From Rhododendron vialii (Eukaryota > Streptophyta > Magnoliopsida > Ericales > Ericaceae): 64,000 nt of DNA. Shown here piece after piece: positions 26,257 to 50,694 of the stretch. Position 1 is the first letter of the stretch. Every line of letters starts with the position of its first letter. The position numbers and the translations under genes are program-made. Where the stretch lies: NCBI RefSeq assembly GCF_030253575.1, contig NC_080557.1, positions 23,731,501 through 23,795,500 of the forward strand, written 5' to 3'. The notes under the pieces are model-generated. The model made no database searches, had not been told where the DNA came from, and was given only the letters and a program-made list of their open reading frames with translations.

Positions 26257-26913
26257 AAACACCGAGGTGGTGATTGTAGTGTAAGCGGCACACTACAATC
26301 ACCACCTCGGTGTTTGAGAATACAGGAATGATTTTCTTTCTAAATGGGGGTGCTAGAACTGAAAAGACCTTTTTGTACAATACTGTTGCCACGAAATGTC
26401 GTAGTCTTGGACACGTCGTAGTCAGCGTTGCTTCATCTGGTATCGCTTCATTATTATTAGTAGGAGGTCGCACTGCACATTCAACATTTTCTATTCCATT
26501 GGATGTGTTGGAAGACTCATTTTGTTCGTTTAGCAAGCAATCTTTACAGGCAGAGTTGTTTAGAAAAACAAGGTTGATTATATGGGATGAAGTTCTTATG
26601 CAACATGGATATTGTGTCGAAACAGTTGATCGCATACTTCAAGACATTTGCGATAATAATAAGCCATTTGGGGGTATCACTATTGTTCTCGGGGGAGACT
26701 TTCGACAAATTCTACCAGTTATACCAAAAGGAGTTTGCGAGCAAATTATGGGAGCATCGTTAAGACATTCTGTACTATGGAATGGTATGCACATTTTGAC
26801 ATTGAGTTTGAATGTGCGCTTAAATAGCATAGACCTTGCGAATTCAAATTTTGCAGAATTCTTGAATGAGGTGATTCTTTAATTGTTGTTTTAAGAAAAT
26901 CATAAGTACTTTT
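25629..26913. repeat. 628-bp perfect inverted repeat (palindrome) with 29-bp spacer
   Basis: The left arm 25629-26256 and right arm 26286-26913 are reverse complements; both are exactly 628 bp and the translated helicase segments are identical. The spacer 26257-26285 is itself a third, partial copy of the arm end (AAACACCGAGGTGGTG repeated). Outside the arms the sequences diverge at once. The right arm is thus an inverted extra copy wedged between Rep and helicase. Possible origins are fold-back replication, a hairpin-mediated duplication or an assembly error. Confidence 0.93.
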
Positions 26914-30032: not shown

Positions 30033-31965
30033 TGTGGGCAGCGTGCCCTTCGGAATTTCCGGATTCCGAGACGCGAGGGGCCCGGATCGGGGGAGCGCGA
30101 GCGGGGAAGCAAGCGCTCGCAAAATACAGAGTCGCCACTCGGCTTTTGAAGGTCCGACACCCAAGGAACCGTATTTCGAAGCACTCGTCGCGCTGTTTGA
30201 TTTGAAAAAGTTAAGGAACCAGTCCGTCATAACCATATCTGGGTTCGGGAGCCAGGTTACGAGAGGGGAAGGGTTTTATGGCACCCCTCTCGCCCAATCC
30301 GGAGATCGGTCTCTACTTAGGCATTGGCGAAAAACGTTTGCGATTCCGTTTGATTAATCAATTTTTAGCCAATTAGGGCGGGGGAACAATTAATCGGGGA
30401 TTAAAACTGTAACAGTTTGCAGGATGTGATAAGATATGGCATGGATCGACGAGATGACAAGTAATAAATGGAATAAAGTTCAAAAATATCGATCAAACAT
30501 CAAAACTGTGCTGTGTATGATTTTGGCACGAACAAACAGCCAGCTTGCATGCGTGAAACCATCTGCATGCCAACAAACCATCGCGCGACACAACCATATA
30601 CTCGCGCGAGACTTGATGCCCTACCAATGGTTTGAATTTTACTCCCTTTGGGGCTCTGGAAGGACCAGTGCACACCCAGGCGCAAACCAAGCAGTTTATA
30701 AGTACTTGAAAGTAAACAATATTACAACAGGCAGATGGAAATATTGTTAAAACACGACCCCTAAACAGTGGGGGTATCTAAACAGAGGCCAAGGCCAAAC
30801 TGCTCATGTAAGGGCAGTCCCTAGAAAAACCCCAAACCGTCGCGCGACATAGTGGTACAGGCGCGCGATTGTTCAGACTGGACTTCCAGGAATTGCTTTG
30901 CATACTTAGGGCTCTGAGACATGTTCAAGAGCATCCCAAGAGCATTCCAAACCAAGAGGAGTTATAAGCTAAGCTAAACCATGATTTTTATCATACAAAG
31001 CAGTGAGCTAATACTTTTAAAAGACTTGAAAAATGACTATGAACACAACAAGAAGCTTAAAGACCAGCATCCCTTCCCCACGTGGTCCAATCTCACGCAG
31101 ACAGAAGTGTCGTGCGAGTGTATGGGACCATCGCGCGAGGGTGTTCCTGGTAACGGCTCTTGAAACCTTGCTAGCTTTAGGGCCAGAATTGGTATTGATT
31201 ACCAGCCTTGACCCTGCCAGCCCCCCTCAGGGGTTCAAACAGTGAGCAGAAAGGTATTATACCTTTGCTTGAGTGTTTTGGAGATGGCTTGAATGAGGTG
31301 GTGAGGCTTGAAAGGTGATTGTGTGGGACAGAGTGTGGTATGAGATGTTTGTGCTTGAGCTTTGCTTCCTCTTTCTTGGAGAAAAAATGGTAACCCTTTG
31401 AAATGAAGCATGGGGGGGGGGGGTTTATAGAAGAATGGGTTGGTTGGTGGCTAGCCAAGGCCTTGTAACCAGCCAACAAGGCTGGTCACAATTGCTTGGT
31501 GGAGAAGTGGGGTGGCAAAGGTGATGGGAGAATGGGGGGTGAGGTGGTGCAAGGGGAGCCCCCCAGAACGCTGTTCAGCCGACGAAAACGGGGTCGCATA
31601 GGCCTGTAGCCCCCTGACCACCACGCAATCCGGGTGAAAATGACAGGTGTTGACCATCGCGCGAGATAGTGAGACCATCACGCGAGGGTCCATCCAACCC
31701 CGCGAGGGTCAATAGTCAAAGCTTTGACTTTGACTACCACCTAGCAAAAGGACCATCGCGCGAGGATACCGGTGTGTCGCGCGATTGTCAAACCCAAGGT
31801 CCAGGTTTTGATTCAAGGGTTTTAGGGCTAAGGATGGGTTCCGCGTACACCAAACTCAAGCCATCCCAAGTTCTCGAGACTGTTTTCGACCTGATTCATC
31901 ATCGGGGAATCAAGAAACCGAAGAACAAAGTAAAACAATCGGGAAGTCAGATCGGGGTGTCTACA
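30033..31965 (-). repeat. 3' LTR of the Tat element (left copy)
   Basis: 1933 bp; on the plus strand it starts TGTGGGCAGCG and ends GGGTGTCTACA, which is TGTAGACACCC...GCTGCCCACA in element sense. It holds five TCGCGCGA pairs with 21-bp spacing. A purine tract (AAAGAGGGACTAC on the minus strand) lies just inside at 31966-31978. ORFs seen here recur in the other LTR and are not genes. Confidence 0.94.
30581..31784. promoter_or_regulatory. Five TCGCGCGA pairs in the left LTR (21-bp spacing)
   Basis: Pair starts are 30581/30602, 30840/30861, 31110/31131, 31657/31678 and 31756/31777. Every pair is spaced 21 bp, leaving 13 bp between two 8-bp palindromes. Three members differ by one base (GCGCGCGA, TCGTGCGA, TCACGCGA), two of them as expected from CpG decay. 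A further degenerate site follows at about 31698. The right LTR has the same five pairs (for example 49307/49328), and some sites decayed here are intact there. Confidence 0.85.
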
Positions 31966-32140
31966 GTAGTCCCTCTTTGACGGCACGTGGAGCACAATTG
32001 GCTGGTACGGGTAACGTCAAAGATTTCTAGACACCCATCCAATCTACCCAAAAGTCGATTTAAACGAAAAGTGCAAGCAAGTATATACAAATATCGTGCA
32101 CCAACGGATCGGTGAGCAGATTGATTGCTGATCCGAATTT

Positions 32141-32557
32141 GGACGGATAGATCGTCGTTGATTGATAATCGGACGGATAGATCGTCGTTGATTTGATAAT
32201 GGACGGATGGATCGTCGCTGGTTGATAATTGGACGGATGGATCGTCGTTGATTTGATAATGGACGGATGGATCGTCGCTGATTGATAATTGGACGGATGG
32301 ATCGTCGTTGATTGAAAATTGGATGGATGGATCGTCGTTGATTGATAATCGGACGGATGGATCGTCGTTGATTGATAATGGACGGATGGATCGTCGCTGA
32401 TTGATAATTGGACGGATGGATCGTCGTTGATTGATAATGGGACGGATGGATCGTCGTTGATTGATATATGGACGGATGGATCGTCGCTGATTGATAATTG
32501 GACGGATGGATCGTCGTTGATTGATAATGGACGGATGGATCGTCGTTGATTGATATA
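32141..32557. repeat. Minisatellite, 14 units of 29-30 bp
   Basis: The unit is GGACGGATGGATCGTCGTTG plus ATTGATAATT. Unit starts are 32141, 32171, 32201, 32231, 32261, 32291, 32321, 32351, 32380, 32410, 32440, 32470, 32500 and 32529. It lies between the antisense PMD gene and the 3' LTR. Most units are 30 bp with no stop on the minus strand, so all three minus frames stay open, with repeats such as SINDDPSVQL; this is a by-product of periodicity. Tat/Ogre elements are known to carry such hypervariable tandem repeats at this place. Confidence 0.95.
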
Positions 32558-32689
32558 AAGGACATCTCGAAGGGTTCCTAAAAGAAAACAATTGCAAGGC
32601 TCGAGCAAGACTCCTGGGCCATCATCAAAGCGATACACATGAACGGGCCTGAACCAGAGGCTAAGCTTAGCGATCGGCCCAGTCGACTG

Positions 32690-32718
32690 TCGCGCGAGGA
32701 TGTCAGAACATCGCGCGA
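32690..32718. promoter_or_regulatory. TCGCGCGA pair upstream of the PMD gene
   Basis: Copies at 32690-32697 and 32711-32718, 21 bp apart, about 200 bp upstream of the first ATG of the PMD gene region. A second pair (33110 and 33131, the latter TCACGCGA) falls in its first exon. Confidence 0.8.
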
Positions 32719-32918
32719 TGGTTTTTCGTCAGGGTCTGGGTTTGCAACCAGCCCAGACCCGGCCCATGGCGTCCTTCTTCCTTTTAATCGACGGGGACGT
32801 TCCCAAACCGCTCACAGCAGTTTCGAACTCCCCCTAACTCTATTCTCTCTCAAGTTTTCCTCTCCAAACACTCGATTTCGTTCCAAAAGCAAGTATACCA
32901 CCATGTATACCATCATCC

Positions 32919-35900
32919 ATGGCAGACCACAGCACTAATCCGGGTAGTGGAGAAGTAGTTGGTTGTCCGGAGGACGAAGGAAGACCAATGGTGGTCGAAA
33001 CAGAGGATCGGCCGCTAGCGGGGGCTGTCGCAGATACCAGTGCAGAGGTAACAGGTGGTGGTGATGGCGAACGGGGTCGCGAGCAGGAGGTGGGTGGCGA
33101 AGGCGATCGTCGCGCGACGCAGTCAGACCGTCACGCGATAGTGGAGATCGGGGTCGTGAGGACTGGAGTCGTGCAACTGGACCCGAGTGAGGCCGTGAGT
33201 GGCTCGGTAGTAGTTGGTGGCACTCCCCGAGGGTGTAGGCAGTGGAGGCGCCGAAGATGGCGCCGCCGGGCCAAGCGAGACTCCGTTAAGGGATCCGGCA
33301 AAAGGCAAGGGTGTGGTGAGCGAGGAAGAGGACACCGTAGAGGTTCCGGAGGAGGAGGTACTGTTTCGGCCAGGGGCAACATCATCGGGCCACAGACCCA
33401 TCACGAGAAAGGACCTTGCAGAGTTTCTGAGCGAGGAGAGACGAACCCGGCTGCTTGAGGAGGATCCCATGATTGGGGCCGCTGTTTTGGAGGCTCGAGA
33501 GGAGCGAGAGCGGGAGATAGCCGCTTCAGAGGTCGCAGAGAGGGCCGAAAGGGCGAGAGCCGCTGAGGAGGAGGTTTTGAGGGATGCGGAGGCCGAGGAG
33601 CGGGTTGGAGCGAGGGGACAGGGGCCCAGGGTGACAGCAGTGTCGGAGGCAGAGGGTTTGACTTGTGCTCCATTTTCGGCAGAGGGATACAGGCCACCGG
33701 TTCCACACCTGTTTGTACCGTCAGGTCTTGCGGCGTACAGGCCACGGCAAGCGGAGTATGACCCCCAGCTTGCTCTGAGAGACCCCGATACCCACATTTC
33801 GAGCAGCTGGGCTGAGGTAAATTTCTGAGAATCCCTCATTTCCTTTTGTGATTGCCATTTTAATACAATGCATGTGCTCAAAAACCGAGGGACGTAGTGT
33901 AATCCTTTGAAGTAGTTTTGAATAGTGAGACTATAGTTTCACGTTGAATGCCATGCATGAGACATAATAACTTGAACCAACCATCTTCTGCCAAGTTGTG
34001 TTGATTACCTAGAACTTGAGAATGAAAGCTTCACATGCTGATATATCCCCTGTTGTTTGTTTCCGTGTCTAATGCAGGAGAGAGCGAGACAGAGAGACAT
34101 CCAAGGTTTTGGGGGCGCCTGCAGCTCCTTGGCGTTGTACCAGGGTTTGCCGGAGAGGGTGAGGCAGTTGGTGGACGAGGCAGGCTTCGAGGAGTTCATA
34201 CAGACCCTGACTCCGGCCAGAAATGACCATGCGGTCTTGGTTGCGCTTGCGGAGAGGTGGAGAGATACCACCAACACCTTCCACCTGCCGCTCGGGGAGA
34301 TGACAGTGATGCCCACGGACTTTGCAGCGATCACTGGTTTGAGGGTTGGAGGCGACCCTATCTCGTTTGACTCGGGCATTCAGGAGGACGAAGCGGCCCT
34401 GGAGTGGTTCTTGGGAGAGGTGCCCAAGGTTGAGGAGGGGATGGCGAGATATGGGCAGTTCACCTGGTACCTTGCAAAGGAGGTGGCGACCGAGCAGGAG
34501 GCGGAGCAGATGGCCCGGGCGTACCTGCTGTACCTTTTTGGTGCTACCCTGTACCCGAACAGGTGTAGTAAGGTTCACCTATCGTACCTGCCTGCACTGA
34601 GGGATTTGAGGACGGCCTCACGCTTTGACTGGGGAGGAGCTGCACTTGGCGCAGCCTATGGCTTCATGGGGGACTCATCGAGGACTGAGATGAGCACTGC
34701 TGGCTACTGGCGGATTTGGGAGGTATGATCATAATAGAGTAAAGTACATTTCCATTATATACTTATCTGTTTGAATACACGAACTGCTCAAAAATATTCC
34801 TGCATTGTACTAATGATTTGAACTTTGATAACTGTGCAGCTCTGGGCCTACGAGGTTTTGAACATGTGCCGTCCAGTGACGAAGAGCCTGGATTTGAGGA
34901 TCCTCCCGCGTGCTCATATCTGGAGCAAGAAGAACATGGGAGAGAAAAGAGGGAGAGGGGACCTGAACGGCTTCAGGATATACCTAGACGAGCTCCGACC
35001 CTCACAGGTATGACGTGACTTTATCAAATAGAAATATGCATCCCTTTTTATTGCTTTAATGCTGTCGCTGACCGACGTTTGCATTGCTTGCTTGTGCAGG
35101 TAGAGTGGGATCCTTGGAGAGTGGCAGAGTCAGAGCCTGAGTACTTGGCCAGGAGCAGGGCCGTGACGGCGAGCAGAGTGCTGCTGGAGTCGGCTTTTGG
35201 TTGGCAGTGGTACTTGGGTGACCGAGTGACACGCCAATCACTTGGCCACGCAGGGTTCCAGGTGCCCGGACCGCTTCCACCACGGGCCTCACACACAGGG
35301 GAGTACACGTTGGCCGAGCTAGAGACCTTCACGCGGCCTGACACCGACTTGACACGCTACTTGCGTCCCGGCATGGACTATGCAGTCTACCAGAGGGAGC
35401 GTTTGGTGGGGCCATTGAGAGTACGAGAGTTCAGGGAGGTCCGGAGTCAGGCCCATGGAGCTGCTGAGGAGAGGAGAGCCGTCACTGCGAGGCAGAGCAA
35501 TGGTGAGAGTCGCGCGAGGCGGGGTCCGAGTGGACCTGCGAGCGGTGGGCCACCAGAGTTAACATGGCATATAGCAGTGGTGGACTCTCAGGGCAATCCG
35601 GCCGAGCTACACCTAGTTCCTGCCAGAGTTGAGCCAGCGCCCGTCACCGTGCCGGTAAGACATTGTATCCTTCATTATTGCACTTCCATAAAATCTTGAA
35701 ACATTGTTCCATTGCTCATATTCAAATTATTCTTGCAGGTGCCCATTGAGTGGGCGAACGAGGCCGTTCGGCGCATGCTTGCACTGGAGAACGTGATAAG
35801 GCGGGCGGCAAGTGGCTTGCCTTTGGACTTGCGTTACCCATCACCGGCAGCTCAGAGATCTCAGGTATATCCTTCAGAGAAACGATACATTCCTGCATTC

Positions 35901-36458
35901 GATACTTGACATATGCATGCTTTGCTCGATACATAGCATACTATAATTGCCGTCAACTTTGAAATTGATTGTACTTGTCTGCAAACATACAACACATAGA
36001 ATATATACTAAATGTGCGAAAATTTTACAATGCAGACACAGGGACGGGCGGCTCCTAGGAGGAAAAACGCGAGAGAGCCTCCACAAAAGAAGCTAGCAAG
36101 CAGGACTCCTGCTCCTCCACCTACTACCAGACCACAGACGCGGGGCGTACACCCACCCATTGCGAGTGAGGAGGCGGCCCGAGAGGCCGTGGCGCGCGCA
36201 GAGGAGAGATATCAATTGAAGATGCGCCAAAGGCCCTCGCAAGACGAGCCGGTCCGCAAGAAGCGGCTGATCCTGCCTGAGGATTCTAAGGAAGAAGAGG
36301 AAGAGGAGGGAGAAGAAGAAGAAGAAGAAGAAGACGAGGAGGCGCCTGACAGCAGCGGCTCAGACGACTCAGCCGACGATCCTGGTTTTAGACAGGATCC
36401 TAGAGAGAGAGACGACGACGACGACGACGGAGATGGCGATTGGTTCGGAGAGGAGTGA
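32919..36458 (+). CDS. Plant mobile domain (PMD) gene carried antisense in the Tat element
   Basis: This plus-strand gene lies opposite to gag-pol. Open blocks are separated by GT...AG introns: first exon ending 33816, then 34078-34722, 34840-35007, 35100-35654, 35739-35864 and 36036-36458. The lengths of the last five (645, 168, 555, 126, 423) are all multiples of three, so all introns are in the same phase. Exon 2 shows the PMD signature RWRDTTNTFHLPLGEMTVMP followed by DFAAITGLRVGG. The last exon is a basic stretch and then a long Glu/Asp tail. PMD proteins (MAIN and MAIL1 in Arabidopsis) are nuclear and help silence or control genes, and relatives are known from transposons. An AATAAATAAA signal lies at 36753-36762. 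The start is unsettled: the first ATG of a long open stretch is 32919, and the N-terminal part is low-complexity. Confidence 0.82.
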
Positions 36459-37413
36459 GGGCTACTAAGAAGCCTCATTTCTCTTTCCACATCTTTGATT
36501 TTTGCTTTTGGGCCTGCGCGCCCGCGTAGATAGATGGAAGGCCGGTGTGCCTTAGTTGATACTTGATACGTGTTTTCGAGGCCTGTGTGCCTTTTTTGAC
36601 TTGATGGGCGAGTGTGCCCGAGCTGACGTGATGACTTTTGACTGGCCGAAGCGCCGCATGCACAGTAGTCTTCTTTACTTTGACATGGATAGATTATGGT
36701 TTAGCTATAAAATTTGCATTTTCGGTTTATTTTACTCTTGTAATGAACTTAGAATAAATAAACGCTTGCCATTAATACCATGCTTGCATTGATAATGTAC
36801 CGAGACTGCTCACGAACGCACGCATACGCACAGACATAATTGACTCAGTGGAAAAACGAAAATGTACCCCAGGATACGGTCAGGATACGAGGATACGAAG
36901 GAATGAAATATTGGACATTCACAAGTCAAAACCTAAAATACCCCAACTTGGATAAGAGGGATGCTTCCGTGAGGTCATGAATATACAAGATGACCTACAA
37001 GAGTTGACAGATTCGAGAAATACCTCCCGAAACACAAAATTGCCCAAAAAACCTTACGAAGGACACGAAAGGGACACGAGATGGAAAAACATGACTCTAT
37101 TATGTCCCGGACTGAAACCGACACCTCCGCACAGTCATACTAGGTCACCATGACTTGTACGGCCTGAGAGAAATGGACACGAACCTTTGGGCCGAGTTTC
37201 GAACTCTCGAAATGCTCATTTGGCCTTGAAACGAGCCACCGAGGGTTCAAAAACCTCGTTAAACGCAAAATCTCGAATCCAATGCTTGGATATGGTTGCA
37301 TATGCTCATAGTGACTTGCTGGAACCATAAAAGTTGCAAAAGTACCCTTGGAACGGGAAGCGACCAAAATTGGACAGTAGCTGGTGCAATCTGTCAAAAT
37401 GCAGGCTGAACCA

Positions 37414-37490
37414 TCGCGCGAGGGAGTGAGTATGTCGCGCGATGGAATGGATCTTATTCACTCGCGCGATGGAATGAGATCATCGCGCGA
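37414..37490. promoter_or_regulatory. Two TCGCGCGA pairs upstream of the DUF7745-like gene
   Basis: TCGCGCGA at 37414, 37435, 37462 and 37483, all perfect; the spacings are 21, 27 and 21 bp. The cluster ends about 205 bp before a TATA-like box and 276 bp before the ATG at 37766, a plausible promoter-proximal position. Confidence 0.85.
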
Positions 37491-37693
37491 TGGTTAGGCC
37501 GTGCCAGGCCACCTTTATTTGACAGTTCCAGATTTTTAGGACGACTAAGCCTTGTCATCACCCTTTTAACTGCTCAAAGTACTTCAGGGCAGGGGGGGGG
37601 GGGGGGAATGCAGAGATGCCTTCACTTTGGAGAAGAGAATGCCACGTTGCATGGATATTTGCACTGGGAAAGTAGAACATTTCACGTATTCTG

Positions 37694-37702
37694 TCTATAA
37701 AG
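37694..37702 (+). promoter_or_regulatory. TATA-like box of the DUF7745-like gene
   Basis: TCTATAAAG, 64 bp before the ATG at 37766, a normal distance for a plant TATA box with a short leader. Confidence 0.5.
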
Positions 37703-37765: not shown

Positions 37766-39028
37766 ATGGCGAATAATCTTCCGGCCTTGATTAGCCCATG
37801 GCTCACGGCCTTTGTTGCTGGAGATTGGCTGTCATTCCGGTTTCACGGGCTGGCCGCATTCCGTTTCCTCCGCAATGTGAGGGTCCGTCCTGAGTTTCTG
37901 AGGGCAGCCCTACAATTCTGGGACCCAGAGGTTCACGTGTTCAGGTTTGGGGTTAACGAGCTGTGCCCAACCGTGGAGGAATTCCAAGCATACCTCCAAG
38001 GAGTCGCCTCGAGCTTGATTGTCGTGCCGCCTTATAGGAAAAGCATGCCAAAGCTCTTACAGTTAAGTCTTGGTATCACCCGGGGAGCGGCCGAAAGTTT
38101 GCTAACCGGAGGGCAGATCAACATCATGCGCCTAATGGAGTGGTATGGGCCAGAAGGGGACGTAGAGAATATAGCCGTGCAGGCCCGGCGTCAATTTGCT
38201 CTGGCAATCGGCGTGCTGGCTGCCTATTTGCTGGTATCTCCGAATGGGCAAGTCAACCCCGTGCTGGTGAGTGTTGCAGCTCAAATGGGCGCCCGGAGAA
38301 ATGTGGTACCACTGGTTCTGGCAGAGACACTCATTGGTTTGGATTTGGTTTCTTCCGGCCAAACAGACGTGTTCGGCGGTAGTCCACTACTACTGCAGGT
38401 TAGTTTAGTTCTCACTCAGCTCACCTTTTTTCGGCTTTCGCACGTTCTGTTTTTACCTCGTCTCTCAGCTAAGGCTATATCGAAGCTTCTTACTTGTCTT
38501 TTCTCTCAAGCTTTATGTAACTTCTCACTTGTTTTTCCACTCATGCAGCTCTGGTTATCCGACAAATTGGGATTGCTCACAGCACCGGAAGCAAGCTGGC
38601 CTCATTTGCCCGGCCGAATGCATCAGCGGGGTATGATCTATCCGGAAATGTCTGTGCATCAATGGTGTACATTTATGAGAAAAATGTTGCCGAACGAGAT
38701 CACATGGCGGCATGAAGCCCTAAACATTCCAGACATGGCCCTGAGTTCTCAAGGTTTCGAGAGAATAGTGATAGCCGGGCTGACCGCTTTCACGTTCTAC
38801 ATCCCTGGACGCATCCTTCGTCAGCTAGGAATGAGCCAAGGACTCCACCGAGCTGGGATTGAAGATTTCCAAGTCCCTGCTTTCACTGCCCAGAATCTGA
38901 GAGGATATGAGCACAACTGGGGCCTGCGGCAACTCGGAGGAGCTGACCCAGACTTCAGTACGGAACTCACGCACCGATATCAAACATGGCTAAGAAGGGA
39001 AATCGCAAGCAGGCGAAACAACAATTGA
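37766..39028 (+). CDS. DUF7745-like protein gene carried antisense in the Tat element
   Basis: A plus-strand ORF of 420 codons is open throughout, but an in-frame 150-bp segment (38399-38548, GTTAGT...ATGCAG) has intron borders and hydrophobic, low-quality translation. Removing it joins SPLLLQ to LWLSDKLG, as in relatives, giving about 370 residues. The sequence RAALQFWDPEVHVFRF followed by ELCPTVEEF, and later IPGRILRQLG, resembles the DUF7745 family common beside plant retroelements and distantly related to PMD. The family's biochemical role is unknown. A TATA-like box lies 64 bp upstream and AATAAA at 39155-39160 downstream, so it looks like a complete transcription unit. Confidence 0.78.
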   Translation: MANNLPALISPWLTAFVAGDWLSFRFHGLAAFRFLRNVRVRPEFLRAALQFWDPEVHVFRFGVNELCPTVEEFQAYLQGVASSLIVVPPYRKSMPKLLQLSLGITRGAAESLLTGGQINIMRLMEWYGPEGDVENIAVQARRQFALAIGVLAAYLLVSPNGQVNPVLVSVAAQMGARRNVVPLVLAETLIGLDLVSSGQTDVFGGSPLLLQVSLVLTQLTFFRLSHVLFLPRLSAKAISKLLTCLFSQALCNFSLVFPLMQLWLSDKLGLLTAPEASWPHLPGRMHQRGMIYPEMSVHQWCTFMRKMLPNEITWRHEALNIPDMALSSQGFERIVIAGLTAFTFYIPGRILRQLGMSQGLHRAGIEDFQVPAFTAQNLRGYEHNWGLRQLGGADPDFSTELTHRYQTWLRREIASRRNNN

Positions 39029-39547: not shown

Positions 39548-42500
39548 TCAAGGATAGTATCGTTTGAGTTGATCCAGGTTAACCAGAGAGCTGAATTCGT
39601 TGCCGTCGAGATCGATGAGCTGAGCCGCTCCCCCAGAAAGGATGGTCTTGATGATGTAAGGTCCGGAACACTTGGGTCGAAATTTGCCGCGGGGGTCGAA
39701 GACTGGTGCCCGAATCTCTTTTGTGACCATGTCTCCTTCGACCAAGTCTCTAGACTTCACTTTTTTATTGAATGCCCGGGCGATTCTCCGCTGATACCCC
39801 TGAACATGATATAAAGCCCGGAGCCTCCTCTGATCAAAAAGCATGAGTTCAACAAATCTCCCACTGAGCCATTCAGATTCCGAGAGTTTCGATTCCACCA
39901 TGATCCTCAAAGATGGTACCTCCAGCTCTATAGGGAGAACTGCTTCCATTCCATAGACCAAGGAATAGGGGGTTGCCCCCGTTGATGTTCGGGTCGACGT
40001 TCGATATCCCCAAAGTGCTAAAGGCAGTTGCTCGTGCCAGTCCCTGGCGGACTCTGCAGACTTCTTAATGATTGTCTCGACATTCTTGTTGGCCGCTTCA
40101 ACCGCTCCGTTTGTTTGGGGACGATAGACCGTTGAGTGATGGACTTGGATCTTGAATTCTTCGAAGAGCTCCAGGACCCTGCCTTTGAAATGACTCCCGT
40201 TGTCTGATACAAACGCTTGCGGAACCCCATATCGGTAGATGATGTTTTTCCTGATGAAGTGAGCGACTTGAACCGCGGTTAGGGTTTTATAAGATTCGGC
40301 CTCCACCCATTTGGTAAAATAATCTATGGCCACAAGGATGAACCTATGGCCATTCGACGCAGACGGTCTGACCATGCCGATGACATCGATGCCCCATACA
40401 GAGAAAGGCCAAGGCGAAGCCATGCCAAATAGGTTAGAGGGTGGAACATGCATTATATTAGCATGAATTTGGCATTTGTGACATCGCCGCACATAATCCA
40501 CACACTGAGATTCCATAGTAGATCAGAAATAGCCTTGGCGCAAGATTTTCCTAGCCAGCATGACGCCGCTCATGTGAGGGCCACAGACCCCCTCGTGGAT
40601 CTCTTCCATGATTCTGACGGCCTCGGTCCCGTTGACACAGAGCTTGTGCATTCCGCAATGAGACCTCTTATATAACTTTCCCCCACAAATGATGTACTGG
40701 GCAGCTATCCTCCGCAATGCAGTCTTGTCCTTTTTAGAGGCCTCGGCCGGATACAAGCCACTCTCGACAAAATTCCATATGTCATGGTACCAAGGTAGGC
40801 CATCATCAACATCATCGATGGCGTTGATATATTGATAAGCGGGGCAGTCCCGCTGTTCGATTAAGACTGGGCGGAGTTTGACTCCCAAAGGTAACTCGAC
40901 CATGGAAGCCAAGGTCGCGAGTGCATCGGCGAACCGATTCTTCAAACGGGTGATGTGGGTGAAAGTCACTTTGTTAAAGCGAGGAATTAGCCCCTCCAAA
41001 TCCTGATGATAAGGTTTCAACCCCTCTTCACGCACCTTCCAGTCCCCATTGGCTTGAGATACAACGAGATTGGAGTCCCCGATGACTTCGAGCCGTTCAA
41101 CGCCAAGCGTGAGGGCAGCCTCCATACCCACGATACAGGCCTCGTATTCAGCTTGGTTGTTTGTAACATCGAAGTTGAGTTTGAATGCAAGCGGAATATG
41201 AGAACCATCGGGGGCGACTAGCAAGACCCCGATCCCAAATCCTTTCTGATTGGCCGCTCCATCAAAGTAAAGAGTCCAAACGTCTTCGACAACTGTTAGC
41301 ACTTCCTCATCTGGGAACACAAAATCTGCATCTTCCGGTCCATCCACAGGGTGATCAGCCAAAAACTCAGCAATGGCTCGTCCCTTCACCGACTTTCTCG
41401 TGACGTATTCGAGATCAAATTCTGCCAAGAGGAGCAACCAACGTGCTAACTTACCAGTGAGAGCTGGTTTCTCAAACAGATACTTGAGCGGATCCATTCG
41501 AGAAATCAATTTCACTGGGTAAGCCAGCATGTAGTGTCTCAACTTTTTAGAGGCCCATACCAAAGCCCAACACGTTTTTTCCAAGGCGGTGTAACGCTCT
41601 TCAGATCCAACCATTTTCTTACTTAAGTAGTAAACGGCCTTCTCAACTCCTTGGTCCCCCTCTTGAGCTAGCAAGCATCCCATGGATGTAGAACTCACGG
41701 ATAAGTATAGAATCAAGGGCTTTCCAGGCACTGGTGGCATCAAGACAGGCGGGTTTTGCAGATAGTTTTGAATTGACGTGAATGCCGCCTGACATCTATC
41801 CGACCATACAAACGGGGTGTCCTTCTTGAGTAGACGAAACATCGGCTCGCAGGTTAAGGTTAACTTGGCGATGAATCTGCTGATGAACTGAACCTTCCCC
41901 AAAAAGCTTCGCACTCCCTTTTCAGTCTCTGATGGCTTCATTTGAAGCACCGCTTTGATCTTTGATGGATCGACCTCAATCCCACGAGAAGTGATCATGA
42001 AACCGAGCATCTTGCCTGCCGTGACCCCAAAGGTGCATTTCTGTGGATTGAGACGCATGCGGAACTTTCGGAGCCTCTCGAAAAACTTCCTCAATACAGG
42101 AACATGCCCCTCCCGAGTTTTTGACTTAGCAATCATGTCGTCCACGTAGACCTCAACCTCTTTGTGCATCATGTCGTGCAGAATGGTCGTAGCAGCTCTC
42201 TGGTAGGTAGGACCAGCATTCTTCAAACCAAACGGCATGACCAAGTAACAATAAGTCCCCCATTCAGTGACGAAAGTCGTCTTCTCACGGTTTTCCGGCG
42301 CCATAAGAATCTGGTTATATCCGGAGAAACCATCCATGAACGAAAGCAGGGCATGGCCCGTCGTATTGTCGACCAATACATCGATATGTGGCAGGGGAAA
42401 ATCGTCCTTGGGGCTTGCCTTGTTCAAATCCCTGAAGTCCACGCACACTCGAATTTGTCCATTCTTTTTAGGAACTGGGACAATGTTGGCAACCCATGTG

Positions 42501-43489
42501 GGGTATTGAGAGACCATAAGAAAACCGGCGTCGATCTGGTTAGTGACCTCCTCCTTGATCCTCTGTACCCAATCCGGCCTCATTCGCCTCAATTTCTGCT
42601 TCACAGGTTTGGCATTTGGTAGCAAGGGGATTCGATGCTCCACTATTTCGGGGTCGATGCCGGGCATGTCTTGATGGGACCACGCAAAAACGTCACTGAA
42701 TTCCGAGAGTAGTTCTTTGAAATCATGATGTTCCTCTGGGGATAAAGTGGAGCCCACCTGAACCATTCGGGGATCATTCTCATCTTTCAAGTTTATTAAG
42801 ACTATTTCTTCTTTTAACGGCTGAGCATGCCTTTCATCTTCCCTTTCGATGAGGGCACGGATTTCCTTAGGAATGTCCCCATCGAAATCCATCCCTTCAT
42901 CGTCGGGGTCGACACAGTTTATATAAAGATCATTCAAGTAGTCAGAAGAGGATTTCTTCATTTCATAAGACCCTGCAGGGTCGCCAAGTACAAGGGAATC
43001 AAACTCAAAGTAAAAGCCATGACGTGGAGGGCCGGGAGGCACAAACTCCGACTCAGAGCTAGACTTAGACTCAAACGACTCAACAGACTCAGTGTCAGAC
43101 TCTGATACATCATCAATGCAAGTAAGGCGTGGTTTGAAAATGCAATTTTTAAGGCTACCCTTTGCTTCTGTGATGAGGGAGAGGGGATCCTTGAGGTCGT
43201 CGGAACCGAGCATGAACACCTCGGCCTCTTCAGCTTCCTTGGCCAAACCCACTTGGGAGAACTCATAAAACAGCTGCTCCAAGCTCCCTTGATCAAAAGA
43301 CATCAGCCAATTAGTCTTCAGCTTGGGCTGGCTAAGCTTCCTTTTGAACTCTGCCCTTGCTGGTTCTTCATCACTAGAGGACCAAGTGTCATCAGCGAAA
43401 ACCTCAAACCCTGGCAGCAATTCCCTAGTGACTGAATCGACAAAAGGCTCAGGTTGCCCGGTGTAGACGTCATTCCCCACTTCGCGCAC
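39548..43489 (-). CDS. Tat element pol: RT, RNase H, archaeal-type RNase H and integrase region
   Basis: On the minus strand the order is: LRRMRPDWVQRIKEEV leading into RT with CVDFRDLNKASPKDDFPLP and the active site VYVDDMIAKS; the first RNase H (ALEKTCWALVWASKKLRHYM); a second RNase H with LYFDGAANQKGFGIGVLL and NNQAEYEACI, whose presence defines the Tat lineage; then integrase with a zinc-binding HHCC-type start (CVDYVRRCHKCQIHANI), the DDE core DYFTKWVEAESYKTLT, VSDNGSHFKG and RPQTNGAVEAANKNVE. It copies the element's RNA into DNA and inserts it. The region is close to whole. It is treated as a fossil, and single defects are not described. Confidence 0.93.
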
Positions 43490-45247
43490 AAAGTAGCTGT
43501 CGGGCTCACCATAGAGAGATCGAGGTTTTCCCGTGCATTTCCTTCTCTTGGCATATCCTTGGTAGAGGAGGAGTACCCCAGACCAAAGCGGCCCTCGCAG
43601 GAAGGAAAGGCAGGGAACTCCGGGATCCCTTGTTGGTGAATCCCAAGACCAAGACCAGGTAGATAGGACATCCTCCTCATGATGTCTAAAGCAACAGAAC
43701 TTATGATGAAGTCCCCATCCACATTGATGGCCAAAACCGAACCAGAAGTATCGAAAGAGAAACCCCCGAGATCAACATCTTCGTCGCCATGCGCAATCCC
43801 CAAAACAGGTGTGCCATCCCTTAAGTGGGCGAATGCCCGAGTCCCCGCAGATAGTCAAAGTTTCGGTAGGGAGTCCCAACATAACCTTTTGGTGAAGAGT
43901 AGACGGTACAGCCATGATGTCAGATCGGTGGAGCCATGGCCTTCCTAGCAGGAGATTAAAGGTGGCCGGGATATCAACCACATGGAACTCGACGTCCATC
44001 TCAAAACCTTCAGTGTCAAGCTTGAGCAGAAGCGTGCCTTCGACCACGCGACGAGTGCTGTCGTATGCCTTAACAGCCAGATTGGAAGGTGCAAAGTCTT
44101 TCTTGGCTAGTCCCAAGCGGTAAGCCACTCTCAAAGGGCAAACATTGATTGCCGATCCGTTGTCGATCAGAACAGTTGGAATCCAGAGTCCCTTACGCTT
44201 AACAGTGATGTGTAAAGGGCGATTGTGATCAACCCCTTCGATCGGTAGATCCTTGTCAGTGAAGACCACGGTGTGCTTAGAAGTAGGCGGGAGAATTATA
44301 GATATCATTGCTTCAGGCGTGACATCCGGTTGAATCTCAAGGCGAGAGAGAGTATGGCAGAACTTCTGACGATGCTCGCGGGAGGAACAGATTAGTCCCC
44401 AGAGTGATATAGCAGCAGGAATCCGCTCCAGCTGCCTCTGAATCATGTCATCATTCGGGGAGCTAGGAGGTACCTCAAACGGTGCAGACCTTGAAAATGC
44501 AGAAGGTTCGTTCCTTTGGTTAGAAGAATTGGACGAGCTCCCGGCCTGCAGATTGGTAGGCTAAAAAATTCGTCCACTCCTCGTAACGTTGAGAACGTTC
44601 TCTAGAGAGGGTATCACTTGAAGGGCTTGACTGTCATTCCAAAGATCAGCAGGGACTTCCCCCAATTTGCGTTTTTCTTTGTCAGAAGGCGGTGGGGCTA
44701 TAGGTGCTTCCATGCCTAGATCGAGGTCTTCAGCTAAATCGTTCAACAGCAGCGACTCCCAAAAGTCTGGCTCTTTACTAGCTACAGCCTCCCCAATGGG
44801 CTCCGTGTTAGCAATGAATGGGATGTCCCAGAGTCCCCCATCGGCAAGAGAGCGGTTGACAGTCCAAACCTCGGACCCAACTTGGATATTAACCACGTCA
44901 TCAACGTCCCAGAGGTCCGCTGGCGGAACAAGGTCTGTAACCATAATGCTGCGATCTTCCTCGGTCGGATAAGGCGGTGCGGGGCGCGAGAGTTCCTCGC
45001 TAACGATGTAGAATGTAGGGTCGTACTTAGTGTTAGTTACAGAGTCAACCAGTCTGTCAAGAGTAGAAGGGAGAAAGCATTCCCCCAAGACGCGAGTTTC
45101 CTCCTGAACAAGACCCTCCTCTATGAACTGAATCTCATGATTGGGCAGCGCGTAACCTTGCAGAGGATTGAGGTCAAACTCTAATGGAAACTGCCACGCG
45201 GGCTCGGGATCCCAATAGTACTCCTCCTCAGGCAGAACGGGTTCAGG
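43490..45247 (-). mobile_element. Tat element protease region and gag-pol linker
   Basis: The minus strand carries the aspartic protease signature VLIDNGSAINVCPL (block 43772-44446) followed by LLLGRPWLHRSDIMAVPSTLH, typical of Tat elements. On either side are long linker stretches of low conservation rich in acidic and Pro/Ser residues. Protease cuts the Gag-Pol precursor in the virus-like particle. A few breaks are likely. Confidence 0.85.
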
Positions 45248-47410
45248 CTATTGAAATAGCATGTTCAAGGAGAATCCATCCAAAGGGTCAAGCATGTCTG
45301 CCTCATAATTAGCCATCCAGGCGTACCAAGCATGGTTAAATGGGACATATTCGGGATTCTGGGGGAAGTCGTCTAATTCTAGCTCCGTCCATTCATTGAT
45401 TATGGGGGCTGCATAGTCATCATTATCGGCAATAGCCCACCCCACTGCTTGCATATCAACTTGCCGTTCCGGTAGAAGAGGGACAGCAGACCTAAAACGG
45501 CTTATCAAATTCGGAGAGGAGTTTGGATCCGTCACATCAAAATACGGGCTGTCCAAGGAAGAAGCAGAGCTGAGCTGCACGAAAGGGATGAACTGGTGAA
45601 ACAGGTCGCTGATGGAAGCGTTGAACGCAAACGTTCCATTTTGCAGGCGTGCGAGGGGCACATCAGGATTGGACGACTGTCCTTCTTCAAGATGGATGTA
45701 GAAGATCTCGGCTTCGGGCTGAGAAGGTATGGGCACGACCGGCTTGGGTTGGTCTGTTGAGGTTATATGGTCGGTGGGGTTGAATATGGTGGAGTTAGGG
45801 TTGATATAAGTGGAGATGAGAGATATTTGGTTGATACGGGGAGCAGCATTGTGCTTTGGCAGGGAGTTGGAAAGGATGTTTGGTTTTTGGGTTGGTGGAG
45901 GTGGAGCGTGGAGAGTCACTTCATCTATAAGATCCTGAATCGCATGTCGGAGACGGAAACAGGAGTCCGTAAGATGTCCAACCCCTTGGTGGTAGGCACA
46001 ATAAAGATTGGCTTTGAAGTTAGGTGAAGGGTTCTTAGGCAGAGGAGTTGGGTCAAGGGGTTTCAGATGCCCTGATTGGATTAACTTCTCCATGACAGAT
46101 GACAGTGGAGCTTCAAATGCAGAGAAACTGCGGGGCTGACTGTGGGGCCGGTTATTTTGAGGGCTTTGCACCTGGTTTATCTCAGCGGTGCGATTGGCTG
46201 CATTTGAAGAAGAGGCGTTAGTGCCGCTGGTTGCTGTGTTGGAAGATCCCCCACTACCAAACAACGCATTGGTGTTCCCTGAGTAGACCCGAGGCTTTGG
46301 TTTCGAAGGGTTAGAGGGCTCCCCTCTTGACAGAATCCCACTTTGTAGCGCATCCTCGATGGCCATCCCAGATTCGAAGAAAGTATCAAAGTTCGAGGAA
46401 GCTTGGACAAGAACCAAATGCCTAGCATAATCAGGCTGAAGATTGCGAGTGATGATTCGGAGCTGATCTCTCTCACTCGGGCGATCGGTCATCTGAGTAG
46501 CCTTCGTCCTCCATCTTTTGACGAAATCCGCAAAGGATTCCTTAGCCTCCATTTTTGTGGACTCAAGCTCTCGGGTTGTCATCTTGAGCTGGGAGTTGTA
46601 ACTATACTGCAAAATAAACGCAGCACCAATGTCCTCCCACGTCCTCCTTTTAGCAATGTCAAACGACAAAAACCAGTGAAAAGCGGGTCCCGAGAGGGTC
46701 TGAGGGAACAGCTAGGACATGGCCTCGGGTTCAACAGCCAAGAGTTTCATGGCGGCATGATAGCCATAGAGATGAGTCTTCGGGTCGCCACTCCCATCAA
46801 ACTTGGCGAGATCAGGCATTTTGAACTTGTCGGGGAGCTTAGCATTGGGATACAAGCAGAGGCGATCTAAATCAATTCCCCCGGCGCTGATCTTTTCGGA
46901 CTTGGACACAGATTCCTCCACATTGACGATCTTTGCCATGAGAGCAGTCATGTTAGGATCCAGAACGGGTCTTGCCACAGCGAGATTCAGATTCGCTGCC
47001 TCCGGGTGAGCCTCTCTCGGGTTGGGCTGAATTATGATCCGCCCTGCATGGTTAGGGTCTTCAACAAAGATTGGTTCTGCATGGTCATCCTCATCGACCT
47101 CGCCTCCCACTTCTGCAGCTGGCGGAAGACGAGTGTTGATAAGGTCATTGAGCCTAGTGAGATTCGCATCAGTCTGAGCACCCCTTTGTTGCATGGTGGC
47201 GATGCTGTTCTGGATGTTCATGAGCATGGTTTCGAGACTCAGTGGTTGCGGATGATCTGCCATAATGGAGGTTCCGGATGAACTTGACGAGGATGGGGAG
47301 GTTGGTGACGCCGGAGACTCAATTTCCTGGAGAACTGACGGTGATCCTAATCGTAAAGCGGCCAACAGGGAGCACGGAGAGTCTTCCGTTGTGACTGACT
47401 GAGCTTGCAA
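45248..47410 (-). mobile_element. Tat element gag region
   Basis: Minus-strand blocks carry a retrotransposon Gag domain: KMPDLAKFDGSGDPKTHL, WEDIGAAFILQYSYN, TTRELESTKMEAKESFADFV with KRWR, and FDTFFESGMAIEDALQSG. A CAYHQGVGHLTDSCFRLRHA knuckle-like motif follows. Gag forms the virus-like particle. The N-terminal part (to 47410) is Ser/Pro-rich. It is near whole with a small number of breaks. Confidence 0.87.
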
Positions 47411-48732
47411 CCTGACTAGCCTTTGAACCGAATTCCGATGCAGACGTTCCCAAGTGGGTTTGGCTCTCTGCCTCGATACTTTCCTTGGCGGCGCAATGGT
47501 TCAGAATCCTGCTTTGCTTTGCTGTAAGAAAAGGTTTGATAAGGGCCCTGCAACAACCTTACTCTAAACAAAAGACTAAAAGTGATAACGCAGCCATCGT
47601 CGTCAGTGTCACCCTTAGACTCTAAGACTACAGACGAGTCTGTCTCATGATGTTCGGACACTGCCAAAATCCTCGGATTTCTTTTCGAGAGTGTATCCTC
47701 GTTTGAATCGAATAATACTAAGAGATGTCAAAAATAGTCTAAGCCTTTGACTTTTCCGTTCTTGAAGTTTCAACTTTGAACTTGGAATAACTCGGGGTGG
47801 ATGACGTGATACCTTAACCGGGGCGGCGTAGGCGACACGGTGCCATAGCCTGAGCGGTGTACGTACTGCGCACGATAACCAGGGTGGTATAAGCATCACG
47901 GCATTCGCTCCGTCGTTCCTTGTTTTCTGTTTGAAACTTCAATTGGGATATAGACAAAGACTTAGAAAGTTTTGATTTCCCAAAGTCTTGCTGATCCTAG
48001 GACTTTGAAAATCTGATAACACACACCGCAAAGATGCGTGACTCTTCATTGGGCCTAGCAGTGTCCTATCAAACATAAGACATACTCGAAAGAGAGACAA
48101 CCTAGAAGCCGCCCTAAACATGCCCTTACGCAAAACGGTATGTATGTACAGTGCATGCGATAGAGAAAGCGGTAACACATAGACAGTATATATGGGGGTT
48201 AGATGCAAGTAATCTTACCCTGTAGGTACCTGTCTTAGTTTGGAGAGTTCAAATGCTTTATATATGCAAAGGCTGGTTTTGGCTTGTAACAGGTTCCTCA
48301 GACTAAGGCCAAAGATATACCTCCCGTTGCCCGCGTAATCGCAGAGCAACAATCGAACGGTAGAATGACCTATCATCTTCGGAGGTTGTTGGTCATTCGG
48401 GGTCCCCGAGCTCCGGTAAACCGTGCCAGATTGCCAAAACGATCCAACGAGGCTTATCCCACATCGATGCAAATGAGAACGCTAAAAATTGATTTAATGG
48501 AACAAAATCACAAATTCGCAAATGTCTTTTCAAATTTGGCTCACTTTATTTAGTCAACGTTTAGAAAAAACTACACGAGAGAACGATCGGAAAAGTCCCA
48601 GATTAGATTGGCCGGACACGAGGTCCCGTTAGATCACCATTCCAACCTTCGGCAGCGCGAAGCTCACCGTTTTGACAAACTTTTGTGGGATCGCTCTTCA
48701 AGTGTATTAAAATCTAAACATAGACCAATATT
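47411..48732 (-). other. 5' leader of the Tat element
   Basis: 1.3 kb between the primer site and gag, without a credible ORF. Long untranslated leaders are usual for Tat/Ogre elements. No TCGCGCGA pair was seen here. Confidence 0.6.
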
Positions 48733-48758: not shown

Positions 48759-50694
48759 TGTGGGCAGCGTGCCCTTCGGAATTTCTGGATTCCGAGACGC
48801 GAGGGGCCCGGATCGGGGGAGCGCGAGCGGGGAAGCAAGCGCTCGCAAAATACAGAGTCGCCACTCGGGTTTTGAAGGTCCGACACCCAAGGAACCGTAT
48901 TTCGAAGCACTCGTCGCGCTGTTTGATTTGAAAAAGTTAAGGAACCAGTCCGTCATAACCATATCTGGGTTCGGGAATCAGGTTACGAAAGGGGAAGGGT
49001 TTTATGGCACCCCTCTCGCCCAATCCGGAGATCGGTCTCTACTTAGGCATTTGCGAAAAACGTTTGCGATTCCGTTTGATTAATCAATTTTTAGCCAATT
49101 AGGGCGGGGGAACAATTAATCGGGGATTAAAACTGTAATAGTTTGCAGGATGTGATAAGATATGGCATGGATCGACGAGATGACAAGTAATAAATGGAAT
49201 AAAGTTCAAAAATATCGATCAAACATCAAAACAGTGCTGTGTATGATTTTGGCACGAACAAACAGCCAGCTTGCATGCGTGAAACCATCTGCATGCCAGC
49301 AAACCATCGCGCGACACAACCATATACTCGCGCGAGACTTGATGCCCTACCAATGGTTTGAATTTTACTCCCTTCTGGGCTCTGGAAGGACCAGTGCACA
49401 CCCAGGCGCAAACCAAACAGTTTATAAGTACTTGAAAATAAACAATATTACAACAGGTAGATGGAAATATTGTTAAAACACGACCCCTAAACAGTGGGGG
49501 TATCTAAACAGAGGCCAAGGCCAAGCTGCTCATGCAAGGGCAGTCCCTAGAAAAACCCCAAACCGTCGCGCGACATAGTGGTACAGGCGCGCGATTGTTC
49601 AGACTGGACTTCCAGGAATTGCTTTGCATACTCAGGGCTCTGAGACATATTCAAGAGCATCCCAAGAGCATTCCAAACCAAGAGGAGTTATAAGCTAAGC
49701 TAAACCATGATTTTTATCATACAAAGCAGTGAGCTAATACTTTTAAAAGACTTGAAAAATGACTATGAACACAACAAGAAGCTTAAAGACCAGCATCCCT
49801 TCCCCACGTGGTCCAATCTCAAGCAGACAGAAGTGTCGCGCGAGTGTATGGGACCATCGCGCGAGGGTGTTCCTGGTAACGGCTCTTGAAACCTTGCTAG
49901 CTTTAGGGCCAGAACTGGTATTGATTACCAGCCTTGACCCTGCCAGCCCCCCTCAGGGGTTCGAACAGTGAGCAGAAAGGTATTATACCTTTGCTTGAGT
50001 GTCTTGGAGATGGCTTGAATGAGGTGGTGAGGCTTGGAAGGTGATTGTGTGGGAGAGAGTGTGGTATGAAATGTTTGTGCTTGAGCTTTGCTTCTTCTTT
50101 CTTGGAGAAAAAATGGTAACCCTTTGAAATGAAGCATGGGGGGGGGGGGGGGTTTATGGAAGAATGGGTTGGTTGGTGGCTAGCCAAGGCCTTGTAACCA
50201 GCCAACAAGGCTGGTCACAATTGCTTGGTGGAGAAGTGGGGTGGCAAAGGTGATGGGAGAATGGGGGGTGAGGTGGTGCAAGGGGAGCCCCCCAGAACAC
50301 TGTTCAGCCGACGAAAACGGGGTCACATAGGCCTGTAGCCCCCTGACCACCACGCAATCCGGGTGAAAATGACAGGTGTTGACCATCGCGCGAGATAGTG
50401 AGACCATCGCGCGAGGGTCCATCCAACCCCGCGAGGGTCAATAGTCAAAGCTTTGACTTTGACTACCACCTGGCAAAAGGACCATCACACGAGGATACCG
50501 GTGTGTCGCGCGACTGTCAAACCCAAGGTCCAAGTTTTGATTCAAGGGTTTTAGGGCTAAGGATGGGTTCCGCGTACACCAAACTCAAGCCATCCCAAGT
50601 TCTCGAGACTGTTTTCGACCTGATTCATCATCGGGGAATCAAGAAACCGAAGAACAAAGTAAAACAATCGGGAAGTCAGATCGGGGTGTCTACA
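48759..50694 (-). repeat. 5' LTR of the Tat element (right copy)
   Basis: 1936 bp, collinear with the left LTR, followed by the second CCGAC at 50695-50699. It contains the same five TCGCGCGA pairs. The length difference from the left LTR is mainly in poly-G runs. Confidence 0.94.

What the first reader, a model, noticed from the sequence alone, without database searches (positions are those of the whole stretch)
30581..37490. TCGCGCGA palindromes occur in pairs with constant 21-bp spacing in LTRs and near the antisense genes
Seen: nine pairs on the left side (30581/30602, 30840/30861, 31110/31131, 31657/31678, 31756/31777, 32690/32711, 33110/33131, 37414/37435, 37462/37483) plus the five matching pairs of the right LTR. 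All are 21 bp start to start while the 13-bp spacers vary. I saw none in gag-pol. Some members differ by CpG-type transitions, and sites decayed in one LTR are intact in the other. Inferred: 21 bp is two helical turns, so two dimeric factors would sit on one face. Each pair could also fold into an 8-bp stem with a 13-base loop. The pairs upstream of both antisense genes suggest co-regulation with the LTR.
Basis: partly seen in the sequence, partly recalled or inferred. Interest (0 to 1): 0.85.

Follow-up and report, generated by a model that had tools for sequence, protein, structure and literature searches.

The report
Paired operator-like sites in plant retrotransposon
A large plant jumping gene carries the same 37-letter, mirror-like DNA signpost at nine distinct places, in its end repeats and beside or inside two genes on its opposite strand, which suggests that a dedicated protein, perhaps one made by the element itself, uses it to recognise and control the element.

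Summary
TCGCGCGA pairs 21 bp apart occur 14 times in the window (9 distinct sites plus 5 in the second LTR) against 0.01 expected from shuffles. All lie in one Ty3/gypsy Tat-type element (30033-50694, minus strand), in its LTRs and in the block with two antisense genes. There are none in gag-pol or in 43 kb of flanks.

The unit is larger than reported. It is 37 bp with outer A-C...G-T edges and a degenerate core in the spacer. Both borders are sharp: pairwise identity is 0.25-0.26 in the 20 bp outside. Its corrected information is about 39 bits. Nothing else in the window scores near it (14 sites at 33 bits or more, next 3.6). The hairpin idea fails a covariation test.

Antisense gene 1 encodes a plant mobile domain (PMD) protein with basic stretches and an acidic tail. 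Gene 2 encodes a DUF7745/PMD-like protein.

Best reading: an operator-like site for a two-dimer DNA-binding complex that co-regulates the LTR and the antisense genes. The binder is probably, but not shown to be, an element-encoded PMD protein, comparable in logic to VANC/VANDAL. No other copies could be examined, because no plant collection was available.

The parts
30033..31965 (-). 3' LTR of a minus-strand Ty3/gypsy element; five 37-bp sites
   Evidence: TG...CA ends, 1933 bp, 36 substitutions against the other LTR; flanking 5-bp duplication CCGAC
48759..50694 (-). 5' LTR; five 37-bp sites starting at 49303, 49562, 49832, 50382, 50481
30577..30613 (.). 37-bp composite site 1 (8-mers 30581/30602), downstream of the chosen LTR TATA
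30836..30872 (.). 37-bp composite site 2 (30840/30861; second 8-mer GCGCGCGA)
31106..31142 (.). 37-bp composite site 3 (31110/31131; first 8-mer with a CpG-type transition, intact in the other LTR)
31653..31689 (.). 37-bp composite site 4 (31657/31678), 228-256 bp upstream of the LTR TATA-like box at 31429 (-)
31752..31788 (.). 37-bp composite site 5 (31756/31777), 327-355 bp upstream of the same box
32686..32722 (.). 37-bp composite site 6 (32690/32711), 201-229 bp upstream of the first ATG of antisense gene 1
33106..33142 (.). 37-bp composite site 7 (33110/33131), inside the first exon region of antisense gene 1
37410..37446 (.). 37-bp composite site 8 (37414/37435), 254-282 bp upstream of the gene 2 TATA box
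37458..37494 (.). 37-bp composite site 9 (37462/37483), 206-234 bp upstream of the gene 2 TATA box; forms a local 21-bp array with site 8
35510..35517 (.). lone exact TCGCGCGA in an exon of gene 1, no partner at 21 bp
32919..36458 (+). antisense gene 1: PMD protein with introns; exons 34078-34722, 34840-35007, 35100-35654, 35739-35864, 36036-36458 give one open frame with GT/AG borders; first exon region up to about 33816 has a frame break in this copy
   Evidence: Pfam PMD 150.2 bits, cutoff 34.9; splice frame
37766..39028 (+). antisense gene 2: 370-aa DUF7745/PMD-like protein, one 150-bp intron (38399-38548); TATAAA at 37696
   Evidence: DUF7745 39.9 bits, cutoff 26; PMD 17.6 bits, below cutoff
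39548..47500 (-). gag-pol region (gag, RT, RNase H, second RNase H, integrase); no 37-bp site
   Evidence: Pfam
32140..32555 (+). 30-bp tandem array, 14 copies, between 3' LTR and gene 1; a different repeat from the 37-bp site

Best explanation
The pairs are one 37-bp, roughly dyad-symmetric operator-like site: A C C/T A/G - TCGCGCGA - 13-bp spacer with a W R Y S R K W core - TCGCGCGA - K R G T. It occurs nine times in the unique part of a Tat-type Ty3/gypsy element. SHOWN: motif, fixed 21-bp phase, sharp borders, confinement to LTRs and antisense block, and no hairpin covariation. Placement: two sites 206-282 bp upstream of the gene 2 TATA, two 228-355 bp upstream of the chosen LTR TATA, one 201-229 bp upstream of the gene 1 ATG; the promoters themselves are predictions. 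INFERRED step 1: a sequence-specific complex of two dimers (or a tetramer) lies on one face of the DNA, each dimer on one 8-bp palindrome, and is compulsory in pairs. INFERRED step 2: the complex is encoded by the element itself, most likely the antisense PMD protein(s). Gene 1 has a PMD, basic stretches that look like nuclear localisation signals, and a long acidic tail. INFERRED step 3: the complex drives or unsilences the LTR and feeds back on the antisense genes, so that all copies of the family are addressed together.
For: 14 matches against 0.01 expected. 9 of 9 distinct pairs are at exactly 21 bp; between 9 and 60 bp the only other spacings among sites with at most one mismatch are 48 (twice) and 27 (once), both from the local array. 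Edge bits 5.2 and 4.4 and spacer bits 10.5 each exceed all 5000 random draws, while the 20-bp flanks are at the null (p 0.46 and 0.09, 8 of 9 sites). Left-out sites score 33.5-44.5 against a best of -3.7 in 30 kb of flank; scored on the positions outside the 8-mers alone, each of the nine beats at least 99.99% of 30,000 flank 37-mers. About 38.8 bits after small-sample correction, more than the roughly 31 bits that single out a place in a 1-Gb genome (own arithmetic). That is more than I would expect a host factor to require, and is natural for self-recognition. No exact 8-mer in gag-pol or the flanks. The antisense genes are PMD and DUF7745/PMD-like; the gene 1 tail is visible. Published context: a review proposes that TEs may make PMD proteins as counter-silencing (PMC8616336, passages). 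In main, mail1 and pp7l mutants 25 of 26 commonly downregulated genes share a promoter motif; binding was not shown (PMC7156037, passages). The Grande antisense gene makes a nuclear protein from its own promoter (PMC7264820, passages).
Against: No binding or expression data. I know of no report that PMD binds DNA; the PMD exon has no sequence match among solved structures up to E 1, and single-sequence folds were useless (mean pLDDT 36.5 and 37.7). Only one copy of the element was available, so co-evolution of motif and PMD is untested; searches with the PMD exon and the pol frame confirmed no relatives in viral or prokaryote contigs. Two of the nine sites are tandem neighbours and five share one LTR, so they are not fully independent. 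Gene 1 has a frame break in exon 1 in this copy. After insertion the sites were not protected: 4 of 36 LTR substitutions hit motif CpGs. Three of the five LTR sites lie downstream of the chosen TATA, one site and the lone 8-mer lie in exons, and no TATA-like string was found for gene 1.
Confidence: 0.42

Rival explanations
1. The 37-bp unit is a binding site for a host transcription factor (paired dimers) that the element has collected in its LTR and antisense promoters; the antisense PMD genes are merely co-regulated.
For: LTRs commonly recruit host factors (general knowledge); five sites sit about 200-360 bp upstream of a TATA box or a start codon; binding by some protein is the common core of this and the best reading.
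Against: About 39 bits of specificity and compulsory pairing exceed what a host factor needs (inference). Search of 5.39 million papers for the 8-mer gave 120 papers, 40 of them listed, and none of the listed titles concerns a plant factor motif; the 4-term search gave 15 papers, 13 listed, again none by title. Recalled CAMTA and E2F consensus sites do not fit TCGCGCGA with these flanks (recalled, not tested against a motif library).
Confidence: 0.33
2. The pairs are CpG-dense marks that recruit or escape DNA methylation (a silencing or anti-silencing nucleation site read by methyl-CpG or CXXC-like proteins), not a classical operator.
For: Six CpGs per intact unit; motif 8-mers hold 60 of 186 CpG positions of the LTR alignment in about 4% of its length, and all 4 motif changes between LTRs are CpG transitions.
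Against: CpG density alone needs neither a fixed 21-bp phase, nor conserved edge and core positions without CpG, nor sharp borders. The CpG substitution rate in motifs does not differ from other CpGs (4 of 60 against 5 of 126, p 0.47). This could be combined with the best reading.
Confidence: 0.12
3. The pairs are remnants of dispersed or tandem 21-bp repeats without function.
For: A local array of period 21, 3.6 copies, at 37412-37493; VANC target repeats are known to spread by tandem duplication (PMC5735166, passages).
Against: No clear third unit beside the pairs: of 18 outward positions, each tried at the exact phase and one base either side, 17 have at least 3 mismatches and one has 2, at a 20-bp step. 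Flanks have no residual similarity (0.25-0.26). Neutral decay would not keep 14 of 18 8-mers exact while spacers fell to 0.42 identity.
Confidence: 0.08
4. Each pair works as a DNA or RNA stem-loop (8-bp stem, 13-base loop).
For: Two identical palindromes can always pair.
Against: No within-site compensation at edges or spacer; G at 30861/49587 breaks a pair in both LTRs; some sites lie upstream of the chosen TATA box, where no RNA from that promoter is expected.
Confidence: 0.03

Closest known systems
VANC / VANDAL21 anti-silencing system (Arabidopsis MULE transposons)
   Same: TE with its own extra gene and an element-specific short motif repeated in its non-coding regions; motif density gives specificity (PMC5735166, PMC10398659, passages).
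   Different: VANDAL is a DNA transposon and its targets are same-orientation motifs, often in tandem repeats. Here: LTR retrotransposon, PMD genes, spaced palindrome pairs with fixed phase. VANC21 motif YAGTATTAY is at chance level in this window (2 matches, 1.76 expected).
Antisense accessory genes of Grande, RIRE2, Retand (Tat elements)
   Same: Antisense ORFs between pol and 3' LTR, tandem repeats there, own promoter and nuclear protein in Grande; a regulatory role has been proposed (PMC7264820, PMC11963269, passages).
   Different: Those in Retand mostly encode TRP28; here PMD and DUF7745. In the passages read, no cis-site shared by the LTR and the antisense genes is described.
MAIN/MAIL1/PP7L (host PMD proteins) and their DOWN motif
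   Same: PMD proteins linked to a promoter motif and to TE silencing (PMC7156037, PMC5418596, passages).
   Different: Host genes (PMD-C clade). Direct binding of the DOWN motif was not shown; its letters are not in the passages I saw (S5E Fig), so it could not be compared.
Paired operators of bacterial repressors (general knowledge)
   Same: Palindromic half-units at two helical turns, cooperative dimers.
   Different: Eukaryotic retrotransposon; binder unknown.

Membership tests
Ty3/gypsy LTR retrotransposon, Tat clade | LTR pair with target-site duplication | tested here: met
   LTRs 1933 and 1936 bp, 5-bp CCGAC on both sides
Ty3/gypsy LTR retrotransposon, Tat clade | gag, RT, RNase H, integrase in gypsy order | tested here: met
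   Pfam hits
Ty3/gypsy LTR retrotransposon, Tat clade | additional RNase H domain (PMC6317226, PMC9289625, passages) | tested here: met
   RVT_3 beside RT_RNaseH, 1e-21; no tree was built
Ogre versus Retand subclade | RT phylogeny, primer type, eORF type | tested here: inconclusive
   PMD found in 57% of Ogre, Transposase_28 in 23% of Retand elements (PMC6317226, passage); no Transposase_28 hit at E 0.01 among the proteins scanned; primer tRNA not identified; no tree
Plant mobile domain (PF10536) proteins | score above Pfam cutoff | tested here: met
   Gene 1 150.2 bits, cutoff 34.9
Plant mobile domain (PF10536) proteins | gene 2: score above Pfam cutoff | tested here: not met
   17.6 bits, cutoff 34.9; it passes DUF7745 with 39.9, cutoff 26
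VANC/VANDAL anti-silencing system | VANC21 motif YAGTATTAY enriched | tested here: not met
   2 matches in the window, 1.76 expected
VANC/VANDAL anti-silencing system | TE-encoded protein removes methylation from copies bearing the motif | not testable with these tools
   needs plants
Targets of a PMD protein | direct binding of PMD protein to the site | not testable with these tools
   no binding data; folds failed

The most novel reading that the evidence does not exclude
Retrotransposon-borne PMD proteins are sequence-specific DNA-binding self-recognition factors. The antisense PMD genes of this element encode proteins that bind a 37-bp paired palindrome in its LTRs and in their own promoters, forming a self-addressed activator or anti-silencing loop. 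The silencing role of the host proteins MAIN/MAIL1 would then be the domesticated counterpart.
Probability: 0.3. Interest if true: 0.87.

Novelty: new variant of a known kind. Interest (0 to 1): 0.64.

Why it matters
The function of the PMD, carried by many plant Ty3/gypsy elements and present in the host silencing proteins MAIN and MAIL1, is described as unknown (PMC8616336, PMC9289625, passages). A compact candidate target with strong internal statistics, placed in the LTR and around the PMD genes, turns an open idea (TE-made PMD proteins as counter-silencing, PMC8616336) into a simple binding test. If a host factor binds instead, it would still be an unusually specific paired-palindrome regulatory site in plants.

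Tried and rejected
Hairpin reading: rejected by the permutation test of within-site pairing. Tandem-array remnant: outward third units sought at 18 positions; one 2-mismatch string at a 20-bp step, the other 17 with at least 3 mismatches. Dyad versus direct repeat: the outermost two edge positions fit an inverted arrangement best (0.81 and 0.71 between sites, against 0.72 and 0.40 for direct); the inner positions do not decide, so 'dyad-symmetric' is an outer-edge statement. Methylation decay rate: no difference between motif CpGs and other CpGs.

Relatives: the exact pair pattern in viral contigs gave 23 stretches, each with one exact pair only and GC 0.48-0.69; several are the same sequence in different contigs. 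None shows a family of sites; the best similarity to the 37-bp profile was 30.1 (L007), with the profile built on a uniform background. The PMD exon matched patterns in 2 viral and 39 prokaryote stretches and the pol frame in 5 viral stretches; tblastn confirmed none. The LTR has no match in plasmids. No plant collection was available, and the window's own genome is not held. No Rfam family at the gathering threshold and no tRNA gene in the window.

Structure: two single-sequence folds failed (pLDDT 36.5 and 37.7) and were not searched further. The first included a few intron-encoded residues at its start, the second a whole in-frame intron.

Literature: all 10 searches used. Nothing in these listings describes this motif or a shared LTR/antisense-gene site by title or abstract start; several listings were capped. 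Papers were read as passages, except one short section.
Full report
THE ELEMENT. The window holds a Ty3/gypsy element on the minus strand from 30033 to 50694. LTRs are 1933 and 1936 bp with 36 substitutions (about 1.9%) and a 5-bp CCGAC duplication on both sides. Pfam finds gag, RT, RNase H, a second RNase H and integrase on the minus strand. The second RNase H marks the Tat clade according to PMC6317226 and PMC9289625 (passages). I did not build a tree, so Ogre versus Retand stays open. The sequence left of the element holds Helitron domains.

THE OBSERVATION. All nine pairs and the five second-LTR pairs exist as stated. Matching TCGCGCGA-N13-TCGCGCGA with up to 3 mismatches gives 14 places, against a shuffle mean of 0.01 and maximum 1 in 100 shuffles. 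In the unique part of the element the 8-mer occurs exactly 15 times, against a mean of 0.195 and maximum 2 in 200 shuffles. It is the commonest 8-mer there once the 30-bp tandem array is set aside. By region: left LTR 7, antisense block 8, gag-pol with 5' leader 0, outside the element 0 in 43,338 bases. Of 21 sites with at most one mismatch, 18 are in the nine pairs; the three singles are 35510, 44376 and 46477.

WHAT THE UNIT REALLY IS. Aligning the nine distinct pairs shows conservation that extends 4 bp outside each 8-mer and then stops. With the tandem neighbour 37462 left out (8 of 9 sites), the left edge carries 5.2 bits, the right edge 4.4 and the spacer 10.5; each exceeds all 5000 random draws. 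The 20-bp flanks are at the null: 6.5 bits against 6.4, p 0.46; and 7.9 against 6.4, p 0.09. Pairwise identity (35 of 36 pairs; the pair of tandem neighbours left out) is 0.25 and 0.26 in the flanks, 0.54 and 0.59 in the edges, 0.42 in the spacer and 0.53 in its 7-bp core. The 37-bp unit carries 49.1 bits raw, 38.8 after correction for nine sequences. A symmetrised profile finds the 14 sites at 33.1-47.7 and nothing else above 3.6 in the window. Left-out sites score 33.5-44.5, while the best 37-mer of the first 30 kb never exceeds -3.7. So there is a clean class of sites without a tail of decayed ones.

NOT A HAIRPIN. If the pairs acted as stem-loops, bases next to the 8-mers should complement each other within a site more than between sites. 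They do not: 17 of 36 edge positions pair, against 20.6 when partners are swapped (p 0.998); 17 of 54 spacer positions pair, against 18.3 (p 0.68). Symmetry exists between sites at the outermost two positions (0.81, 0.71), as expected of a protein site.

POSITION. Of four TATA-like strings found on the minus strand of the 3' LTR I chose TATAAA at 31429; the matching box is not found in the 5' LTR copy. Two sites lie 228-355 bp upstream of it and three lie 291-848 bp downstream. Gene 2 has TATAAA at 37696 and two sites 206-282 bp upstream. Gene 1 has one site 201-229 bp upstream of its first ATG and one at +191 to +219 within the first exon region; no TATA-like string was found for it. These start points are predictions.

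THE ANTISENSE GENES. Gene 1: five exons from 34078 to 36458, joined at GT/AG borders, give one open frame with a PMD of 150.2 bits. By eye it has basic stretches near the C terminus and a long acidic tail. Its first exon region is interrupted by a change of frame in this copy. Gene 2: two exons, 370 residues, DUF7745 39.9 bits, PMD only 17.6 bits and below its cutoff. PMD genes in gypsy elements are known (PMC5418596, section read; PMC6317226, passage). Antisense genes with their own promoter are known in Grande (PMC7264820, passage).

AGE AND DECAY. Between the LTRs 4 of 36 substitutions fall in the 80 motif bases, all CpG transitions; none fall in the 65 spacer bases. Motif CpGs mutate no faster than other CpGs (4 of 60 against 5 of 126, p 0.47). 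The decay is what one expects of a methylated, silent copy. I infer that the conservation was enforced in the active lineage before this insertion.

MECHANISM. A factor or factor pair that occupies two palindromes two helical turns apart explains phase, compulsory pairing, borders and absence of loose sites. I rate some protein-bound regulatory site at about 0.8 overall (best reading plus host-factor reading, partly also the methylation reading). Who binds is open. The element's own PMD protein is my first choice (0.42) because the sites accompany the LTR and the PMD genes and carry more information than a host factor would need. A host factor is next (0.33). The closest analogy is VANC/VANDAL21 (PMC5735166, PMC10398659, passages), from which it differs in element class, protein and site architecture; the VANC21 motif itself is at chance level. 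[quoted passage not shown]

LIMITS. One copy of one element; no plant collection; relatives sought in viral and prokaryote contigs and plasmids without success. Nine sites are not fully independent. No binding, expression or methylation data. Single-sequence structure models failed.

Noticed in passing
25629-26256 and 26286-26913: Perfect 628-nt inverted repeat with 29 nt between the arms; the right arm encodes a PIF1 helicase fragment and the left arm is its reverse complement. Recent inverted duplication or assembly artefact.
   Followed up: partly
7119 to about 20300: Head-to-tail repeat of a 5370-bp unit: exact run 7119-12834 against +5370 (5716 positions), then nearly identical to about 14800. 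Very recent amplification or assembly artefact.
   Followed up: partly
32140-32555: 30-bp tandem array, 14 copies, 91% matches, between the 3' LTR and antisense gene 1; tandem arrays in this region are described for Retand elements (PMC11963269, passage).
   Followed up: no
31412-31423 and 37592-37606: Long G runs near the chosen LTR TATA box and upstream of the gene 2 TATA box; the LTR run differs by 3 bases between the LTRs.
   Followed up: no
36036-36458: The last exon of gene 1 encodes a very acidic tail preceded by basic stretches, an architecture like a nuclear regulator.
   Followed up: partly
28529-29065: Helitron_like_N domain on the minus strand just left of the insertion; with the target duplication it suggests that the element landed in or beside a Helitron.
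   Followed up: no
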